The notes under the pieces were generated by a model. It was given only the letters and a program-made list of their open reading frames with translations. It was not told where the DNA came from and did not search any database. 64,000 nucleotides of DNA from a virus. Below, one piece after another: positions 1,686 to 52,214 of this stretch (its first letter is position 1; each line of letters starts with the position of its first letter). The stretch is from positions 1 to 64,000 of the IMG/VR virus record IMGVR_UViG_3300025634_000002. The stretch is one strand, 5' to 3'. Position numbers and translations under genes: made by a program.

Positions 1686-3047
1686 TTACTGCTCGCCCCA
1701 CAGCACGTAAGTGCCGGTGGCGTTGCTCAAGACGAATTTGATGTGATCGGTCACGTCGTTCTGAGTGGCTTCGGTGAAATCTAGCAGAACCCCGACATTA
1801 TCCTGCGCGGCGCTTCCATTTCCAATGGCGCTTAGCCCGCTGATGTATTTGCTGGTGGACGCGAGACCTGCATTGAGCACTTCCACAGTTCCCGATGACG
1901 AAGACGACCCGCCGACATCGGTCCCGATAGTATTGGCGGTGCCGTAGCTCGATCCTCCGTTGGAGGAGAGGGCCAGGGTCACATGTCCCACGGACCCCGT
2001 GGTGACCTCTTTGAAGACGATCTTCAGCCGCTTGTAGGTCGCGCCAAGTGCGATGCCGGTTCCGGACGAGATCGAACCGCCGTTGATGCGGGTCCAGGTT
2101 TCAGTGCCCGCGCTCGCGCTTGAGCATGTAGCCGCGGCATCGCTGAGGTCGCCACAAGCAATCGCCTGAGTGCCACCGAGCGATATGCTGTGCCCAGCGA
2201 TATTCATGGACGAATTCGTCAGCGACGAGTTCCCGATATTAGAGAGGGTATTGCTCGATCCTGAGATGGTCTTGTTGGTGACGGTATCGGTGCTGTCGGC
2301 ATTGAGCACCGTTCCAGCAGTGTGGAACTGCAGATTGCCGCCACCGGTAGCCGGGGCCTTGAGGGTCGCTGACCCTGACGTAGCTCCTTTGAGAGCGACA
2401 TCACCGTCGTTGAACGACTGAACCCCTGACCATGTGTTCGCGCCGTTGAGCAGCGGGATCGTGCCACCACTGGTGCCGGTCGCCGTAGAGCATCCCGTCG
2501 CGCCATTCGATAGATCGGCACAGGCGAAGGTCTGCGTCCCACCGAGCGACACCGAGTGCCCGGCGAGGGTCATGCTCGAATTGGCGAGCGCCGTGTTGGC
2601 TACGGTCGCACAAGTCCCAGCCCCCGCCGTCGAAATGGCGGAGATGAACTGATTGGTGCAGGTAGTAGCCGCTGGCAGTGGGGCAGCGAACCACACCGAA
2701 TCCGGCGTCAGGCTGATCGTTACAGTGCCGGTGAAACTGACCTTCGAGCCAGAGTTCGATGAGGCATAGACCGTGGTGCGAGCGAGCGTTGGGCCAACCG
2801 AGGAATACGTCCCCAAGCCCTGTTCCCAGTCGCCGGCCGTGTCGGTTGCGACATACTGAGCGGTATTACTGTTGCCGACAGTCGACCACGCCTGCAACCC
2901 GGTTGGCGGGGTGTTGAGCAGGACGAAATCGGAAGTGCCGGCCGTAAGTGACGTATCCTGGACGCGGTCAACCCAAATCGGGCCAGCCGCAAGGGCTGGC
3001 ACCGAGAGGAGCGCGACGACCGCGGCGAGGAGGAGGCGCTTCAGCAT
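1686..3047 (-). CDS. Fibre-like protein with Sec signal peptide
   Basis: 453 residues. It opens with a classical signal peptide (MLKRLLLAAVVALL, cleavage near ALA-AG), then GPIWVDRVQDTS, a start common in phage fibre proteins. Two copies of a module with NSS-x3-AGHS-x-SLGGTQ followed by AC-x-DLS lie near residues 155-190 and 275-310. The Ser/Gly/Thr-rich beta composition fits a tail fibre or host-contact protein. Its ATG overlaps the stop of the upstream gene (TGATG), so the two are probably translationally coupled. Confidence 0.7.
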   Translation of the reverse strand: MLKRLLLAAVVALLSVPALAAGPIWVDRVQDTSLTAGTSDFVLLNTPPTGLQAWSTVGNSNTAQYVATDTAGDWEQGLGTYSSVGPTLARTTVYASSNSGSKVSFTGTVTISLTPDSVWFAAPLPAATTCTNQFISAISTAGAGTCATVANTALANSSMTLAGHSVSLGGTQTFACADLSNGATGCSTATGTSGGTIPLLNGANTWSGVQSFNDGDVALKGATSGSATLKAPATGGGNLQFHTAGTVLNADSTDTVTNKTISGSSNTLSNIGNSSLTNSSMNIAGHSISLGGTQAIACGDLSDAAATCSSASAGTETWTRINGGSISSGTGIALGATYKRLKIVFKEVTTGSVGHVTLALSSNGGSSYGTANTIGTDVGGSSSSSGTVEVLNAGLASTSKYISGLSAIGNGSAAQDNVGVLLDFTEATQNDVTDHIKFVLSNATGTYVLWGEQ

Positions 3048-3925
3048 CAGGCCGCCGTGAGCGTGAGAGACGAGGCCGCAAACGATGCGGTAACACCAGA
3101 CGGCACCGACTGCTGCGTGATCTTGCGGACCATGCCGTCGCCGGTTCCAGTAGTGTTGACACCGACGTTGAAATTGTCACCGCTGACGCCCGCGACCGTC
3201 AGGGCCCCGGCAAACGACCCACCAGTGGCCGGGAGCGTGCCGCCGTACTTCTGGGTAACCACGACCGGATCACCGTTCGAATACCCATTGGCGGGGCTGG
3301 TAAATACGCCCGGGCTTGCATTGGTACAGGTAAACGGCAGCCACGAATAGTTGCCCAGATAGTCGCCGGAGATGTAGTTGCCGGAGGTCAGGGCGTCATA
3401 GACGCCGAACGCCACGACAGTGCCCCAGGAGCCGGTCGCCGCGGGGAAGGTGACGACGGCGCCATTGGTCACACTGGCCGGGGAGGTCGCGGGCTCAGCG
3501 CCGCTCGAGGCGGATGCCGCAGGCCATGCCGAAAACTGGATGCTGTCGCCATTACCGACGCCGCCGCCCGAGGCGTTGGCGCTCATGACGACCGTGGTGC
3601 CGGTGACCGATAGGACAGTCGTGCCGGCCGGAATGACAGAGGGCGCGGTGACGTCGGTGATCGTCATGCCGGGGACGATCCACGCCGGGGTCGATGCGAA
3701 ATGGAGCGTCGCGTTGCCCGAGGCTGTAGTATTGTTGGTAGTAGCCGGGCCCGCGACCTGGACGCGGGCATAGGAACCGCCCGAGACTTCGGTGCCGCCG
3801 GAGCCAGCATCGCTCGGAGCGACCGTGAACAGCGCGAGGAACCGATTGACCAAGGCGGGCATAGCCGTCTGGCCACTCTCCCAGTTCAGGAGTGACTCGG
3901 CAGAAGAATCAGACAAGCCGGGCAT
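3047..3925 (-). CDS. Phage tail fibre-like protein
   Basis: 292 residues. The N-terminal 60 residues (LSDSSAESLLNW, NRFLALFT, GSGGTEVSGG, YARVQV) match a short family of phage tail/virion proteins that follows fibre genes. The remainder is Gly/Thr/Val-rich beta sequence including a PGMTITDV segment like beta modules elsewhere in this genome. No signal peptide, unlike its neighbours. Exact position in the virion is not known. Confidence 0.7.
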   Translation of the reverse strand: MPGLSDSSAESLLNWESGQTAMPALVNRFLALFTVAPSDAGSGGTEVSGGSYARVQVAGPATTNNTTASGNATLHFASTPAWIVPGMTITDVTAPSVIPAGTTVLSVTGTTVVMSANASGGGVGNGDSIQFSAWPAASASSGAEPATSPASVTNGAVVTFPAATGSWGTVVAFGVYDALTSGNYISGDYLGNYSWLPFTCTNASPGVFTSPANGYSNGDPVVVTQKYGGTLPATGGSFAGALTVAGVSGDNFNVGVNTTGTGDGMVRKITQQSVPSGVTASFAASSLTLTAA

Positions 3926-10358: not shown

Positions 10359-12398
10359 TTAGAGCGTCTTGACCTGGTGATCCTTGGCTTCGGGGAAGCG
10401 GCTGAAGAAGCCGCTGGCCGCCGCAGCGTCAGTGGCGATCGTCACCTGCCGAGCGCCAGAGCCGGGGAGCGGCTGCGCCTTGAGGATGGCGCGGTAGGTG
10501 CCAGCCTCGTGCGGAACGTCGACGAGGTCGACATGCATGGCCACCAGAGCGGTCTTATAGACCTCGGCGGCACTATCCATCGCGACGGCGATCTTGCCGA
10601 TGTAGGGGCGAACCTCTTCCTCGGCCTTGCGGATATCGCGCTCGACCTGACGGGCTTCGGCGACGGCCTTGGTGACGGCGGCGTCCATGGCCTTGCGGTC
10701 CTTGGCGGACTTGTCCTTCGCCTCGTCCTTGTCGGCCTCTTCTTTGGCCTTCTTCTTTTTCTTTTCTTCCTCGTCGTCGTCTTCGTCCATGGCTTCCTGG
10801 TCGTCCTTGTCCCAAAGGGCGTCGCAGGCCTTCATGTCGTCGGCGCTGAGTTTGTCCTTGAGGAATTCGTTGACGCGCTTGCGCGGGTCCATCTCCTCGT
10901 CTTTGGCCCTCTTGCCCATCGGCACGCCGGCATTCGGATCGAGGTCTTCGCCGAGCTCGGTCGATTCGAGCGCGTCGAGCAGTTCGATCATGTCCTCGAG
11001 GTCGGCATCCTTGGCCAGCTTGCCCTTGGTGAGCTTGGTCACGCCATCGGCGATGCCGGCACGGCTATCGGCGTAGTTCTTGCCGGTCACCTTGGCCAAC
11101 AGCGGCGTGAGGTCGATCTTGGTGTCCGCGGCCAACTTGGGCTTGAGGAACACAGTGAGCGCACCCTGCACGAGGGCCGCTTTGCGGGTCAGAAGAGGCT
11201 TTGCGGCCATCTCAGGGTTCTCCTTGATTGCTGAATCGCCGACAACGACATCGGGCCCGGCGCGGCCTTGAGTTACGAGGGCGACGTGATTGCCGACAAT
11301 GTCGCGCATCACGCCGTCATAGGGTTCGCCCTCATAGCTGCCGGGCGTCATATCGGCCCGGTAGCGATAGGCGGACGAAAGTTCTTTCTGCTTACCGGAC
11401 TCGATAAGCTCGATCGCCTCGCCGTCCCAGATGGAAAGCGGGGCCATCAGGTAAGGTGCTTCGAAAACCACGTCGTCGCCGATGGCGCCGATCGTGATCT
11501 CCCGATGCGAGTCCTCGGCGCTGACCGGAATGTGCTCCATCAGCAATTGCTTGCCGGCGAAGGTCGGCGCGGCCTTGGCGAGCTCCACCGGGTCGCGGAG
11601 GAGCATGTAAACCTTTTGCGGATCGAGCCCCATGGACTCGGCGTCCGCGATCTCGTGGCCCCAGTAGGGGCAAATGTTCGCCTTGCTGATCGGGGTCATC
11701 TCGACGAAGAGGTGGCCATCCTGATCGATGCGGCGAACGCTGTCCCGATCGAAGGCAATCGCCCGCGGCCGATCGGCCGAGGCGCGATCGAACGCCATGG
11801 CAGCGTCCTGTGCCGGCATGGCTTCGACTTTGGCTCGCACCCAGCCGGCGAAGTTCTGCTTGAGCTCGTCCCAATCCGCCGGGAACATCGCGCCCGCCAG
11901 ATCGAGACTGAGACGGCGCTCGAGCGTCTGCTTCACTCCGGGATGGAGCGGTGCCGGCAACTGATCGAGCGGCACCCAGGCAAATCCCGAATGCTCGTCG
12001 CTCAGCGTCGGCGCGAATTTAGTGTCACTGGGCTGCGCGAAGGTATGGAACGCCATGCCCTTAGGTGTCACGGCGCTATCGAGCAGCTTACGCGGCGTCA
12101 GCGGGATCGAACCCACCTCCTCGCCAGCTTCGCGGGCCGCAATAGCCTCAGGGGCTTCCCCGGGCTCGCCCTTGCCACCCGGCAGATCCCAATGGCCTGC
12201 CCAGTTCTCATCGCCTGAGCGGCGACGGAGAAGCAGGATGTCACCGTCGGGCGCCACGAACATGATGCCGGACGCGAGACCGTTCACGGCATCCTTCGCG
12301 ACGAATTCTTCCCCGACGGCTTTGGGGATTCCGAGCGTCGAGTGACCACTGGCCGCTGCGAACATCGCTTTGCGTTGAGCTTCCGAGACGGCTGGCAT
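10359..12398 (-). CDS. NUDIX - DUF2213 prohead protease - scaffold fusion
   Basis: 679 residues. Residues 1-36 (VSEAQRKAMFAAASG) match a short phage motif; residues about 43-165 are a NUDIX hydrolase domain with the box G-x5-E-x7-RE-x-x-EE-x-G at 75-97; residues about 215-385 are DUF2213, a prohead-protease-like domain with candidate catalytic His289 (LLMEHIPV) and Ser341/342 (ELSSAYRY); residues 545-600 are a Lys/Asp/Glu-rich helical scaffold. The protease/scaffold matures the head; the NUDIX part would hydrolyse a nucleoside-diphosphate derivative, substrate unknown. The fusion is continuous with no internal stop. Confidence 0.85.
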   Translation of the reverse strand: MPAVSEAQRKAMFAAASGHSTLGIPKAVGEEFVAKDAVNGLASGIMFVAPDGDILLLRRRSGDENWAGHWDLPGGKGEPGEAPEAIAAREAGEEVGSIPLTPRKLLDSAVTPKGMAFHTFAQPSDTKFAPTLSDEHSGFAWVPLDQLPAPLHPGVKQTLERRLSLDLAGAMFPADWDELKQNFAGWVRAKVEAMPAQDAAMAFDRASADRPRAIAFDRDSVRRIDQDGHLFVEMTPISKANICPYWGHEIADAESMGLDPQKVYMLLRDPVELAKAAPTFAGKQLLMEHIPVSAEDSHREITIGAIGDDVVFEAPYLMAPLSIWDGEAIELIESGKQKELSSAYRYRADMTPGSYEGEPYDGVMRDIVGNHVALVTQGRAGPDVVVGDSAIKENPEMAAKPLLTRKAALVQGALTVFLKPKLAADTKIDLTPLLAKVTGKNYADSRAGIADGVTKLTKGKLAKDADLEDMIELLDALESTELGEDLDPNAGVPMGKRAKDEEMDPRKRVNEFLKDKLSADDMKACDALWDKDDQEAMDEDDDEEEKKKKKAKEEADKDEAKDKSAKDRKAMDAAVTKAVAEARQVERDIRKAEEEVRPYIGKIAVAMDSAAEVYKTALVAMHVDLVDVPHEAGTYRAILKAQPLPGSGARQVTIATDAAAASGFFSRFPEAKDHQVKTL

Positions 12399-46480: not shown

Positions 46481-46635
46481 TCAGCCCCTATCCCAACATC
46501 ATCCTCGTCGCCCTCGACCGCAAGCGTGCAAAGCGCGACCGGTTGCTGTTCGAATCCATCATGGTCACAGCCTCGCTGGATGCTATCGCAGAACTGCTAA
46601 ATCGGGATTGGGCGGTAGGGAGGAATGGGCCGTGA
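46477..46635 (+). CDS. Very small protein
   Basis: 52 residues (ISPYPNIILVALDRKRAKRD). ATGA and GTGA overlaps at the ends are the main support. Confidence 0.5.
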   Translation: MISPYPNIILVALDRKRAKRDRLLFESIMVTASLDAIAELLNRDWAVGRNGP

Positions 46636-46838
46636 GCGACTGGCAACCGATTGAGACGGCTCCTAAAGACGGAACTGACATCCTGCTTTACCGTCGTAAC
46701 TGGCACCAGAGTGCTCCAGTCGTTGCTGGCTGGTTTGAAGACGGATGGTATGCCTACGATCATGATTCAGAACAGGTGCCAGAACTCGGCGGCATAACGC
46801 ACTGGATGCCACTCCCCGAGCCACCATCCCGGCAGTAG
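46632..46838 (+). CDS. DUF551-like small protein
   Basis: 68 residues from GTG. WQPIETAPKDGTDILLY and ITHWMPLPEPP are the DUF551 signature, widespread in phages and without known function. Last protein gene of the operon, followed by a hairpin terminator. Confidence 0.75.
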   Translation: MSDWQPIETAPKDGTDILLYRRNWHQSAPVVAGWFEDGWYAYDHDSEQVPELGGITHWMPLPEPPSRQ

Positions 46839-46880: not shown

Positions 46881-46889
46881 GTTAATCTT

Positions 46890-47052
46890 GCAGTGCGCAT
46901 CTAGAACGGCTATATCGGTTTCGAGGCAGAGGTCGCGGGTGCAAAGCCCGTTGTCATCCGTGTGGGCCTAGGCTAACGCACGGTGGACATAGCTCAGAGA
47001 TAGAAGAGCGCTGCCGAGCAATCTTCACAGTTCGTTAGGCGGACCATGCGTA
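46890..47052 (+). ncRNA. Y-RNA-like (YrlA-like) RNA: tRNA-like domain in circularly permuted order
   Basis: All four tRNA helices are present, but in the order 3' half then 5' half. Anticodon stem: GGCAG (46925-46929) with CTGCC (47011-47015). T-arm: GCGGG-7-CCCGT (46935-46951) after a variable AGGTC. Acceptor-like helix: 46952-46964 with 46977-46989, 13 positions, two mismatches, closed by a 12-base loop, so no free CCA end. D-arm: TA-GCTC-10-GAGC (46990-47009). Outside the anticodon stem, CTAGAAC pairs with GTTC..TAG and GCGCAT with ATGCGT, giving an open long stem where Ro-type proteins bind Y RNAs. A strong hairpin follows. It lies about 560 bases before rtcB. Confidence 0.65.
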
Positions 47053-47085
47053 TCCTCCGGGGGCAACTTCGGAGGATACGTTTAT
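47049..47085 (+). terminator. Hairpin terminator of the Y-RNA-like gene
   Basis: CGTATCCTCCG and CGGAGGATACG make a perfect 11-bp stem around a 10-base loop, then TTTATG. The T run is short. It overlaps the last bases of the proposed Y-like RNA stem by three. Confidence 0.65.
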
Positions 47086-47216: not shown

Positions 47217-47291
47217 CTGGGCGTAGCTCAGAGGTAGAGTGCCGCACTCGGAATGCGGAAGTCGCTGGTTCGATACCAGCCGCCCAGACCA
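47217..47291 (+). tRNA. tRNA-Pro (CGG)
   Basis: Complete cloverleaf: acceptor CTGGCG-type 7-bp stem with CGCCCAG, D-stem GCTC/GAGT, anticodon stem CCGCA/TGCGG with loop CTCGGAA (anticodon CGG), T-stem GCTGG/CCAGC with loop TTCGATA, discriminator A and encoded CCA. Reads CCG proline codons, frequent in this GC-rich genome. Confidence 0.92.
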
Positions 47292-47397: not shown

Positions 47398-47456
47398 AAG
47401 TTTTCGCCGAGAGGCGATCCTAGTTCGAGTCGCACTTGATAATCAGAGGAACGAGA

Positions 47457-47596
47457 CCAAGCCCGGTGTAGCGATACGGTGCGGGTGTAACTGGCGAGAT
47501 GAGTATGGTTAGCCAGTAGGGTCACGGGGTAAAACGAGGCGTCATCACCAACACGCCTATCGTCCTCAAAGCCGGGTCGCGCCCGGCGTAATTTTT
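47457..47596 (+). ncRNA. Structured leader upstream of rtcB, ending in a terminator-like hairpin
   Basis: Successive hairpins: GCCCG/CGGGT (47461-47486), ACTGGC/GCCAGT (about 47489-47518), AGGCGT/ACGCCT (about 47537-47558) and GCCGGG/CCCGGC (47571-47587) followed by GTAATTTTT. The last is a good Rho-independent terminator only 20 bases before the rtcB ATG, so it may end the tRNA transcript or act as an attenuator. No canonical tRNA fold was found in it. Confidence 0.45.
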
Positions 47597-47615: not shown

Positions 47616-48791
47616 ATGGACTTCCTGACTTACGGCTCGCATGACGAAAACACCATCGCCCAGATGACCGCCTGCATGGCCTTCGATGACGCTGCGGCCG
47701 GCGTTCTTTGCGCCGATGGCCATCTCGGTTACGCGCACCCCATCGGGGGTGTCGTCGGCTACACCGACCACATTTCGATCAGCGGCGTCGGCTTTGACAT
47801 CGCGTGCGGGAACATGGCCGTTCGCCTAGATGTGAAAGCCTCTGAGATTCGCCCGCGCATTGCCGAAATCATGCAGCAGATCGGCCAAGTCGTGAGCTTT
47901 GGCGTTGGTCGAACCAATGACGAGCGCGTCGAGCATTCGCTGTTCGACAGCGACCTGTGGAACGCGGCTGGCGTGCCGGAACTGAAAGCGATGGCGCACA
48001 CGCAACTCGGCACGGTCGGGAGCGGCAACCACTACGTGGACTTGTTCGAGGACGAGGACGGCTGGACGTGGATCGGCAATCATTTCGGCTCGCGCGGTCT
48101 CGGGCACAAGATCACGACCAAGTATCTGGCCGCAGCAGGGGCCAAGGACGGCATGCTGGTGCCTCCTGCGCTTGTGCCTGCCGACAGTGACCTTGGCCTA
48201 GGCTACATGGCTGGCGTCGAACTTGGTGGGCTCTACGCCTATGCGGGGCGCGAGTGGGTAATCGAGCGCGTCCGCAAGATCGTCGGCGGCGAAGTTACCG
48301 AGAGCGTCCACAACCACCACAACTGGTGCTGGCGCGAGACACACAACGGCGTTGACATGTGGGTGGTTCGCAAGGGTGCGACCCCCGCATTCCCGGGCCA
48401 GTATGGTTTCGTCGGCGGCTCGATGGGCGACGACGCAGCGATCCTTCGCGGCGTCGAGAGCGAGAAGTCGAAGGCCTCACTCTACTCGACCGTCCACGGC
48501 GCGGGCCGCATCATGTCGCGCACCGATGCACGCGGGCGTTTCGTCAAGAACCCCGAGACCGGCAAGAAGGAACGCCAGCCCGGAAAGGTTCGCCACGATG
48601 AATGGCAGAACTGGATCAGGGAAAAGGGCGTGACGCTGATTGGTGCTGATCTGGATGAGGCTCCGCAGGCCTACCGTCGCCTGCCTGAAGTCCTCGCGGC
48701 CCATGAAGGCACTATCGAGATCATGCACACACTCAGCCCGTTCGGCGTCATCATGGCCGGTGCTGATGTTTTCGATCCGTTCAAGGACTGA
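47616..48791 (+). CDS. rtcB: RtcB RNA ligase
   Basis: 391 residues, a usual length. Metal and active-site motifs: GVGFDIACG (D61, C64), GSGNHYVD (H139), NHFGSRG (H156), VHNHHNW (H234/235), RKGATPA, GGSMGDD and STVHGAGR with the guanylylated His294. RtcB joins 2',3'-cyclic phosphate or 3'-phosphate ends to 5'-OH ends with GTP and Mn. It lies directly after tRNAs and a Y-like RNA. Ribosome site AGGAGA. Confidence 0.92.
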   Translation: MDFLTYGSHDENTIAQMTACMAFDDAAAGVLCADGHLGYAHPIGGVVGYTDHISISGVGFDIACGNMAVRLDVKASEIRPRIAEIMQQIGQVVSFGVGRTNDERVEHSLFDSDLWNAAGVPELKAMAHTQLGTVGSGNHYVDLFEDEDGWTWIGNHFGSRGLGHKITTKYLAAAGAKDGMLVPPALVPADSDLGLGYMAGVELGGLYAYAGREWVIERVRKIVGGEVTESVHNHHNWCWRETHNGVDMWVVRKGATPAFPGQYGFVGGSMGDDAAILRGVESEKSKASLYSTVHGAGRIMSRTDARGRFVKNPETGKKERQPGKVRHDEWQNWIREKGVTLIGADLDEAPQAYRRLPEVLAAHEGTIEIMHTLSPFGVIMAGADVFDPFKD

Positions 48792-50756: not shown

Positions 50757-50833
<77 letters not shown>

Positions 50834-50891
50834 ACTTTGAGCTAACCACGTTCCCCAGCCCTAGACCGGCAGGAACGCAGTGGAGAGGGCC

Positions 50892-51866
50892 ATGAAGCAG
50901 ATCATCAAGATCAAGTTCGGTTCGCACCTTTACGGCACTTCGACGCCGGCAAGTGACGTTGACTTCAAGTCCGTCTTTATCCCCGACGCGCGGTCAATTC
51001 TTCTACAGCGAACCAAGGGCTCGATCAACGATCAGCGCCCCAAGGCAGAGTTCGAGAAGAACACCGCTGGCGAGATCGAGGAGGAGCGCTTCAGCCTACA
51101 GAGATTCCTTGGCCTAGCAGCCGAGGGGCAGACGGTCGCACTCGACATGCTCTTTGCGCCGTCATGGTCCTTTGTCGCGGAGCCATCGCCGGTCTGGTAC
51201 GAAATCCTCGATAACCGTCACCGGCTGGTCAGCCGCAGGTCTAAGGCGTTCATCGGCTACGCCATGAAGCAGGCGTCAAAATATGGCGTCAAGGGATCCC
51301 GCGTGGCCGCGTCCAGGAATGCTCTGAACATCCTCGCCAGGGGCATGGCTGAGCACGGGACGGTCGCCAAGTTGGAAGTGATGGCCGAGATCATCAAGCC
51401 CGTTGCAGAGACCGACGAGCACATGGCTATCGTGCCGATCACGATGCCAAACGGCGGCGTTGTCGATCATTGGGAGGTGTGCGGCCGGAAGATGCCTTAC
51501 TCGAGCAGCATCAAGAACGCGCACGGGATCATGCAGCGGCTTGTGGAAGAATACGGGCATCGCGCGCTTCAGGCCGAGAGCAACCAAGGCGTGGACTGGA
51601 AGGCCCTATCCCATGCGGTGCGCGTCGGCCATCAGGCCATCGAACTGCTCAACACCGGATTTGTGACCTTCCCGCTTCCGAACGCAGCGCATATCGTCGC
51701 CATCAAGAAAGGCCAGTTGGACTACAAGATCGTCGTAGAGGAAATCGAGACCGTGATGAACGGCGTTCTGGACGCGGCCGACAAGTCGCCGCTGCCTGAT
51801 GAACCGGACATGGTGTGGATCGATGATTTCGTGTTCGAGATGCACCGTCGAGAGGTCGTCGGATGA
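50892..51866 (+). CDS. Predicted nucleotidyltransferase (DNA polymerase beta superfamily)
   Basis: 324 residues. FGSHLYGTSTPASDVDFKSVF holds the GSxxYG...SDxD signature (metal-binding D-V-D) of minimal nucleotidyltransferases of large phages and bacteria; the C-terminal helical part (ALSHAVRVGHQAIELLNTG) is usual for the family. Substrate unknown. I chose ATG 50892 over GTG 50880 because GGAGAGG lies just before it. It follows the initiator tRNA by 59 bases, so a tRNA-directed role is possible. Confidence 0.8.
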   Translation: MKQIIKIKFGSHLYGTSTPASDVDFKSVFIPDARSILLQRTKGSINDQRPKAEFEKNTAGEIEEERFSLQRFLGLAAEGQTVALDMLFAPSWSFVAEPSPVWYEILDNRHRLVSRRSKAFIGYAMKQASKYGVKGSRVAASRNALNILARGMAEHGTVAKLEVMAEIIKPVAETDEHMAIVPITMPNGGVVDHWEVCGRKMPYSSSIKNAHGIMQRLVEEYGHRALQAESNQGVDWKALSHAVRVGHQAIELLNTGFVTFPLPNAAHIVAIKKGQLDYKIVVEEIETVMNGVLDAADKSPLPDEPDMVWIDDFVFEMHRREVVG

Positions 51867-52081: not shown

Positions 52082-52214
52082 CGAACTTAGCTCATCAGGT
52101 TAGAGCGCTCGACACAACACTGAGGAAGTGGGTAAGGTTCAACCGCTGGCCGCCGAGTGGAAGCAAGGCATCGTCCTAGACGGTTATTCCGGCAGGCCCG
52201 GGCGGCCAGCACAA
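52082..52214 (+). ncRNA. Putative structured RNA with tRNA D-arm-like element
   Basis: TAGCTCATCAGGTTAGAGC (52088-52106) is a perfect tRNA D-arm, but no acceptor stem or normal anticodon and T-arm follow. AGTGG/CCGCT encloses GTAAGGTTCAA. A perfect 10-bp helix joins GCTGGCCGCC (52145-52154) to GGCGGCCAGC (52201-52210). It ends in a strong terminator. Could be a tRNA remnant or a tRNA mimic. Confidence 0.4.

What the first reader, a model, noticed from the sequence alone, without database searches (positions are those of the whole stretch)
46890..47085. Permuted tRNA / Y-RNA-like gene beside rtcB
Seen: a T-arm followed by a closed acceptor-like hairpin, then a D-arm, with the outer strands forming a 5-bp anticodon-type stem (GGCAG/CTGCC) that continues into CTAGAAC/GTTC..TAG and GCGCAT/ATGCGT helices, then an 11-bp terminator hairpin. 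That is the order of a tRNA cut open at the anticodon loop. Known: bacterial YrlA-type Y RNAs mimic tRNA in this way, Y RNAs bind Ro60/Rsr, and rsr, Y RNA and rtcBA are often neighbours; I recall this without checking. Inference: a phage Y RNA or a permuted tRNA repaired by RtcB. No Ro/TROVE gene is in the window.
Basis: partly seen in the sequence, partly recalled or inferred. Interest (0 to 1): 0.9.

Follow-up and report, generated by a model that had tools for sequence, protein, structure and literature searches.

The report
Y-RNA-like tRNA mimic beside rtcB
Just upstream of its tRNA and RNA-repair genes this phage carries a stretch that would make an RNA shaped like a tRNA whose halves are joined in reverse order and whose amino-acid end is sealed shut, the shape of a bacterial 'Y RNA', but without the Ro protein gene or the Ro-binding signals that normally go with it.

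Summary
Window 46925-47015 has, in tRNA numbering but permuted order: anticodon-stem 3' strand, AGGTC variable loop, 5-bp T-arm, closed acceptor hairpin, UA, D-arm, anticodon-stem 5' strand. It is the only such arrangement in the window; 300 simulated windows gave none. It is not called as a tRNA. A covariance model built from 20 phage Y-RNA-like RNAs, whose helices covary strongly, finds it (38.3 bits, E=6e-9; 23.2 bits, 8e-5, filters off). rtcB follows at 47616 and an RlaP-type repair nucleotidyltransferase at 50880. The outer parts fail: a full-length model gives 19.5 bits, against 42-130 for the best match at each Ro locus tested; Rfam YrlA gives 14.3 against a cut-off of 69; no Ro/TROVE gene lies in the 71-kb record; the outer helices are not the minimum-energy fold. 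No close relative was found, so covariation of this copy is untested. A true permuted tRNA joined by RtcB is not supported. Best reading: a diverged, Ro-less Y-RNA-like tRNA mimic in a phage RNA-repair cluster; expression and function unproven. A variant of a known kind.

The parts
46895..47051 (+). Probable extent of the Y-RNA-like transcript if the outer helices form (about 157 nt)
   Evidence: Read from sequence; full-length model R2 aligns 46886-47052 at 19.5 bits, E=0.0018. Ends not shown experimentally
46895..46907 (+). 5' strand of the proposed basal stem (GCGCAT, CTAGAAC)
   Evidence: Complementary to 47030-47038 and 47046-47051, but not in the minimum-energy fold
46915..46924 (+). Small hairpin TCG-GTTT-CGA in the 5' internal loop, at the place of the anticodon-like hairpin of many Y RNAs
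   Evidence: Present in the minimum-energy fold; position by comparison with alignment A4
46925..46929 (+). Anticodon-stem 3' strand (tRNA 39-43), GGCAG
   Evidence: Five pairs with 47011-47015
46930..46934 (+). Variable loop AGGTC (tRNA 44-48)
   Evidence: Read from sequence
46935..46951 (+). T-arm GCGGG-TGCAAAG-CCCGT; U54, C56, A58 kept, position 55 is G
   Evidence: the same TGCAAA loop occurs in the phage Y RNA L403 and TGCRA loops in annotated tRNAs
46952..46989 (+). Closed acceptor-like hairpin (4 bp, 2x2 mismatch, then CCGTG/CACGG); no CCA
   Evidence: Minimum-energy fold of the 91-nt module
46990..47009 (+). UA (8-9) and D-arm GCTC-AGAGATAGAA-GAGC
   Evidence: aligned to the D-arm of models YrlA, R1 and R2
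47011..47015 (+). Anticodon-stem 5' strand (tRNA 27-31), CTGCC
   Evidence: Pairs with 46925-46929
47030..47051 (+). 3' strand of the proposed basal stem (GTTCGTTAG, ATGCGT)
   Evidence: Complementarity only; no Ro-side similarity
47049..47080 (+). Strong hairpin, terminator-like but with a weak T tail; 3' arm contains GGAGG ahead of an ATG at 47084
   Evidence: not called as a terminator
47217..47291 (+). tRNA-Pro (cgg)
   Evidence: ARAGORN, Rfam tRNA 66.6 bits
47321..47397 (+). tRNA-Thr (tgt)
   Evidence: ARAGORN, Rfam tRNA 54.5 bits
47616..48791 (+). rtcB, RNA ligase
   Evidence: PHROG 1075 tRNA splicing ligase, 9.6e-65
50757..50833 (+). tRNA-Met (cat)
   Evidence: ARAGORN, Rfam tRNA 60.5 bits
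50880..51866 (+). RlaP-like nucleotidyltransferase of RNA repair
   Evidence: PHROG 388, 1.6e-84; Pfam PF10127 RlaP 46.3 bits, cut-off 23

Best explanation
A phage-encoded, diverged Y-RNA-like tRNA mimic that sits at the head of a tRNA - rtcB - rlaP repair cluster and no longer shows, or never had, the Ro-binding stem. It most likely acts by mimicking the elbow and acceptor side of a tRNA (T-arm, D-arm, sealed acceptor stem), so that it occupies or steers a tRNA-binding protein. The likeliest targets are a host tRNA-cleaving nuclease, for which it would be an uncuttable decoy since it has no anticodon loop and no 3' acceptor end, or an exonuclease of the PNPase kind, while RtcB and RlaP mend the real tRNAs. 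Shown: the anatomy, the match to the covarying phage family, and the neighbourhood. Inferred: transcription, the fold in the cell, and the whole mode of action.
For: Tight tRNA numbering in permuted order, unique in the window and absent from 300 simulated windows. R1 match 38.3 bits / 6e-9 or 23.2 bits / 8e-5 with filters off, in the expected register. R1's family covaries: 65 cells changed on both sides against 24 in shuffles, covariation score 0.442 against 0.137. Family members often occur in records with a Ro gene, and model R2 finds Y RNAs at the Ro loci tested. Similar RNAs occur in records without a detectable Ro gene, among them the phage of L280, which has an RtcB 73% identical to this one and two Y RNAs. 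A long acceptor is not unique: L149 has 45 nt there. L403, in a record with a Ro gene, has the same TGCAAA T-loop and also lacks GG in the D-loop; it is the candidate's nearest match, z=10.9, though it was fetched by a pattern for that T-arm. rtcB and RlaP are neighbours.
Against: No close relative was found, so no covariation test of this copy was possible. The full-length model scores only 19.5 bits, no better than the core, so the flanks add nothing. A pair of adjacent true tRNAs in the same window scores nearly as well as the candidate with R1 (35.5 against 38.3), better with filters off (28.0 against 23.2) and better with R2 (30.0 against 19.5), so the score leans heavily on the T-arm and D-arm alone. 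A rival fold is more stable. The decoy or tether role has no direct evidence. Salmonella YrlA is not cut by the DNA-damage-induced nuclease and was proposed as a competitive inhibitor there (PMC7790460), but that is a proposal too.
Confidence: 0.55

Rival explanations
1. A relic: a once Ro-bound phage Y RNA that lost its Ro gene and Ro-binding stem and is now decaying, without function.
For: Low YrlA and R2 scores, loss of U55 and of GG in the D-loop, two acceptor mismatches, a rival fold, no Ro gene.
Against: All arms still pair (5-bp anticodon stem, 5-bp T-stem, 4-bp D-stem, long acceptor hairpin); position in a compact repair cluster; L403, whose record has a Ro gene, shows the same loop departures.
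Confidence: 0.2
2. A working Ro-type Y RNA that uses a Ro protein of the host, or one not recognised, with a basal stem too diverged to recognise.
For: Records with Y RNAs but no detected TROVE gene exist; 15 of 249 genomes of the order of the Falsochrobactrum genome that carries a 78%-identical RtcB have a TROVE gene over the cut-off; L371 from one of them has a Y RNA near it.
Against: No recognisable Ro-side motifs; flanks mostly no more similar to known Y RNAs than shuffles (one of 11 comparisons, L101 on the 5' side, reached 0.013). The host of this phage is unknown and Ro is rare in that order.
Confidence: 0.17
3. A genuinely permuted tRNA gene whose transcript is cut at the basal stem, joined by the phage RtcB and trimmed to a tRNA.
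For: The order of the pieces and the adjacent RtcB.
Against: No CCA; the acceptor is sealed by 5 more pairs and has 2 mismatches in 7; nothing like U33 at the cut; no GG in the D-loop; in the related family the acceptor ends in short closed loops such as TTCG or GAAA, which does not look like a processing intermediate.
Confidence: 0.03
4. Chance, or debris of two adjacent tRNA genes.
For: T-arm followed by D-arm is trivial in tRNA arrays; the adjacent tRNA-Pro/tRNA-Thr pair matches the same models.
Against: Debris of two tRNAs would not pair at both the acceptor and the anticodon stem. Of 159 T-arm/D-arm neighbours examined, only 6 have at least 4 contiguous acceptor pairs plus 5 anticodon pairs, the window among them; no hits in simulated windows.
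Confidence: 0.05

Closest known systems
YrlA-type bacterial Y RNA (Rfam RF02553; Salmonella, Deinococcus and others)
   Same: Permuted tRNA-like module with T, acceptor and D arms, a possible basal stem from the two ends, similar size (about 157 nt; 90-150 nt given in PMC8394870), neighbourhood of rtcB
   Different: 14.3 bits against a cut-off of 69; no Ro gene in the record; no recognisable Ro-side motif; acceptor hairpin 38 nt instead of about 16; no U55 for TruB to modify
Phage Y RNAs, e.g. L403, L107/L086, L101, L125 (found here; Y RNAs in mycobacteriophages are cited as known in PMC12282133)
   Same: Same module; L403 shares the TGCAAA T-loop and a D-loop without GG
   Different: They are in records with a TROVE gene and most have GGTTACTTC plus an anticodon-like hairpin and a 3' CTTGNTC-like strand; the candidate has none of these clearly
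Phage Y-RNA-like RNAs in records without a detected Ro gene (L148, L149, L133/L120/L113, L145, L176, L137, L280)
   Same: Module with sealed acceptor; L133, L120, L081 and L148 have a 5-bp anticodon stem like the candidate; L280 also has rtcB
   Different: The best of each scores 52-72 bits with R1 where scanned, against 38.3; their T-loops are standard (the search pattern demanded it)
Circularly permuted tRNA genes and permuted tmRNA
   Same: 3' half precedes 5' half
   Different: Those are processed to a free CCA end (my knowledge); this one is sealed, has no CCA and no usable anticodon loop

Membership tests
Bacterial/phage Y RNA (YrlA type) | tRNA-like module: T-arm, closed acceptor stem, D-arm in permuted order | tested here: met
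   R1 38.3 bits, 6e-9, 23.2 bits, 8e-5
Bacterial/phage Y RNA (YrlA type) | Large basal stem formed by the 5' and 3' ends | tested here: inconclusive
   Complementary strands exist but are not in the minimum-energy fold, and the full-length model gains nothing from them
Bacterial/phage Y RNA (YrlA type) | Score above Rfam's YrlA gathering cut-off (69 bits) | tested here: not met
   14.3 bits, E=2.1; but clear Y-RNA-like RNAs in six other loci also fall short, at 36-48 bits
Bacterial/phage Y RNA (YrlA type) | Full-length model of mostly Ro-linked Y RNAs (R2) | tested here: inconclusive
   19.5 bits, E=0.0018 over the full length; the best match at each Ro locus tested scores 42-130 bits
Bacterial/phage Y RNA (YrlA type) | Ro/TROVE gene in the same genome | tested here: not met
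   None in the 70,972-base record; the record may be incomplete and a host Ro cannot be excluded
Bacterial/phage Y RNA (YrlA type) | Ro-binding strand motifs of the family | tested here: not met
   Flanks mostly no more similar than shuffles to 11 reference RNAs; the lowest fractions are 0.013 (L101, 5' side) and 0.047 (L280b, 3' side) among 22 tests
Bacterial/phage Y RNA (YrlA type) | Binding to Ro and PNPase, modification by DusA/TruB | not testable with these tools
   Needs biochemistry; position 55 is G, so TruB could not act there
tRNA | Recognised by ARAGORN or Rfam tRNA | tested here: not met
   Not called
Permuted tRNA gene | Full acceptor stem with CCA and free ends after trimming, anticodon loop with U33 | tested here: not met
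   5 of 7 acceptor pairs, GTG instead of CCA and further pairs; A at the place of U33
Phage RNA-repair cluster (RtcB, RlaP, tRNAs) | RtcB and RlaP with tRNA genes close together | tested here: met

The most novel reading that the evidence does not exclude
A Ro-independent branch of Y-RNA-like tRNA mimics in phages: sealed tRNA look-alikes that work inside RNA-repair clusters as decoys for tRNA-cutting defence nucleases or as guides for RtcB/RlaP, with no Ro protein involved.
Probability: 0.22. Interest if true: 0.72.

Novelty: new variant of a known kind. Interest (0 to 1): 0.45.

Why it matters
If it is expressed, it would show that the Y-RNA module can persist in phages without Ro, inside a tRNA/RtcB/RlaP repair cluster. 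That would make the proposed role of Y RNAs as tRNA mimics in the fight over damaged tRNAs testable without Ro and its exonuclease partners. It also adds to a set of phage Y-RNA-like RNAs that Rfam's YrlA model scores below its cut-off.

Tried and rejected
Blast for the element in phage and plasmid records: none. Exact D-arm patterns in viral and genome contigs: none. T-arm pattern in viral contigs: tRNAs, other sequence without the arrangement, and one real Y RNA, L403. YrlA and R1 scans of phages related by RtcB, RlaP or portal: mostly tandem tRNAs; real Y RNAs only in L280 and L313. Permuted tmRNA was considered after a weak hit in another phage and dropped: no tmRNA match here. A second D-arm at 52088 proved not to be a second Y RNA. 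The score difference between filters 'off' and 'default' for R1 (23.2 against 38.3 bits) is not explained; both are reported. That window 47438-47562 might be part of the same RNA was dropped: it recurs in other phages with unrelated flanks.

Full report
What is there. Window 46890-47085 lies between a short DUF551-like gene (46608-46838) and a tRNA-Pro gene (47217), with no long reading frame across it. Read in order it holds, on the + strand: GGCAG (tRNA positions 39-43), AGGTC (44-48), a 5-bp T-stem with the loop TGCAAAG (49-65), the 3' acceptor strand TGTCATC, a closing hairpin, the 5' acceptor strand ending in GACA, TA (8-9), a D-arm GCTC-AGAGATAGAA-GAGC, one base, and CTGCC (27-31). That is a tRNA in permuted order with its acceptor end sealed. 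The numbering is exact: five-base variable loop, 5-bp T- and anticodon stems, two bases before the D-arm, one after it.

Is it more than chance. A descriptor of that arrangement hits the window once and 300 simulated windows of the same dinucleotide make-up never. It was written with the candidate in view, so this is support and not proof. Among 159 T-arm/D-arm neighbours in all loci, only six have at least four contiguous cross-acceptor pairs and all five anticodon pairs; tandem tRNAs as a rule do not. The 91-nt module folds on its own into this shape, with 13 of 1000 shuffles as stable.

The family it resembles. After tandem tRNAs were set aside, about two dozen have a short sealed acceptor hairpin. 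Twenty were aligned: acceptor, T and anticodon stems covary far beyond shuffles and slid controls. Conservation of the T-loop and D-arm there is partly built in by the pattern. In 14 of 24 such records there is a TROVE (Ro) gene, 13 over the cut-off, and in three of a further set. A longer model, R2, built from 21 RNAs that include three Paenibacillus ones, finds a match at every Ro locus tested; several of those loci overlap the training set, L371 does not (69.5 bits). So this family is the known Y-RNA kind; phage Y RNAs are mentioned in the literature (PMC12282133, PMC7765460), and Ro proteins in jumbo phages (PMC7824862).

How the candidate compares. With the core model R1 it scores 38.3 bits (E=6e-9 in 129 kb) or 23.2 bits with filters off (8e-5), both in the expected register; the adjacent true tRNA pair scores 35.5 and 28.0. 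With R2 it scores 19.5 bits, against 30.0 for that tRNA pair. Rfam's YrlA aligns it in the same register but at 14.3 bits, E=2.1, while clear Y-RNA-like RNAs in six other loci reach 36-48 bits, also below the cut-off of 69. Flanks outside the module are mostly no more similar to known Y RNAs than shuffled sequence. The T-loop G55 and the loss of GG in the D-loop looked disqualifying, but L403, a phage RNA in a record with a TROVE gene, has both. A long acceptor hairpin also occurs elsewhere (L149).

Neighbourhood. Downstream come tRNA-Pro and tRNA-Thr, rtcB (47616-48791), tRNA-Met and an RlaP-type nucleotidyltransferase (50880-51866). PMC7824862 describes RlaP as predicted to restore lost nucleotides before ligation and RtcB as a tRNA ligase in phages. 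In Salmonella, rsr, Y RNAs and rtcBA form one operon switched on by tRNA cleavage, and YrlA was suggested as a competitive inhibitor of the nuclease (PMC7790460). The own record, 70,972 bases, has no TROVE gene. The phage of L280 offers a parallel: RtcB 73% identical, two clear Y RNAs, no TROVE gene in 67.6 kb. Hosts could supply Ro: 15 of 249 genomes in the order of one RtcB relative have it over the cut-off, but the host of this phage is not known.

Verdict. I read it as a diverged Y-RNA-like tRNA mimic that belongs to a phage RNA-repair cluster. I do not file it as a Y RNA, because a linked Ro gene and Ro-side motifs were tested and not found. That it works like the tRNA-mimic half of a Y RNA is an inference from shape and neighbourhood. 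A decaying relic is the main rival. A permuted tRNA joined by RtcB is very unlikely. The missing evidence is covariation among close relatives, and expression.

Noticed in passing
window 47438-47562; L002:3001-3123; L007-L019: A roughly 125-nt block is nearly invariant across phages with unrelated flanks (84% identical to a Klebsiella phage), sits near tRNA genes in several, and has a stem around an invariant loop (GAGATGAGTATGGTTA) that changes on both sides (CTGG/CCAG, ATGG/CCAT, GCGG/CCGC, CGGCC/GGCCG). No Rfam match..
   Followed up: partly
alignment A4: L101, L074, L112, L075, L125, L107, L059, L243, L232 and others: Many phage Y RNAs and the Paenibacillus ones carry, just before the T-arm side of the module, GGTTACTTC and a small hairpin with a 7-base loop often of the form CTNNTAA, like an anticodon loop; its 3-bp stem covaries (14 cells changed on both sides against 3.5 in shuffles). 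Whether this is described is not known to me..
   Followed up: partly
L133, L120, L113, L085, L063, L145, L148, L149, L137, L176, L280: Viral records with clear Y-RNA-like RNAs but no TROVE gene found in the record held; some records are fragments..
   Followed up: partly
L137, minus strand, 2812-3069: At least two very similar Y-RNA-like modules head to tail..
   Followed up: no
L002:2690-2940: Non-coding stretch with matches in about 360 phage records, mostly of enterobacterial phages, in a region that folds more stably than shuffles (z -4.6); part of it has a weak match to Rfam tmRNA_permuted (33.3 bits, cut-off 47)..
   Followed up: no
window 52082-52150: A D-arm (TAGCTCATCAGGTTAGAGC) followed by what may be a degenerate tRNA remainder; not called as a tRNA..
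   Followed up: partly
window 10359-12398, minus strand: One reading frame matches NUDIX/MutT families in its first part and head maturation protease families in the rest..
   Followed up: no
L371, position 1255-1391: A Y RNA near a TROVE gene in a genome of the order of Falsochrobactrum; its 5' strand GGGTTATCGGAT resembles the candidate's CGGCTATATCGGTT by eye, but the similarity of the 5' part is not significant..
   Followed up: partly
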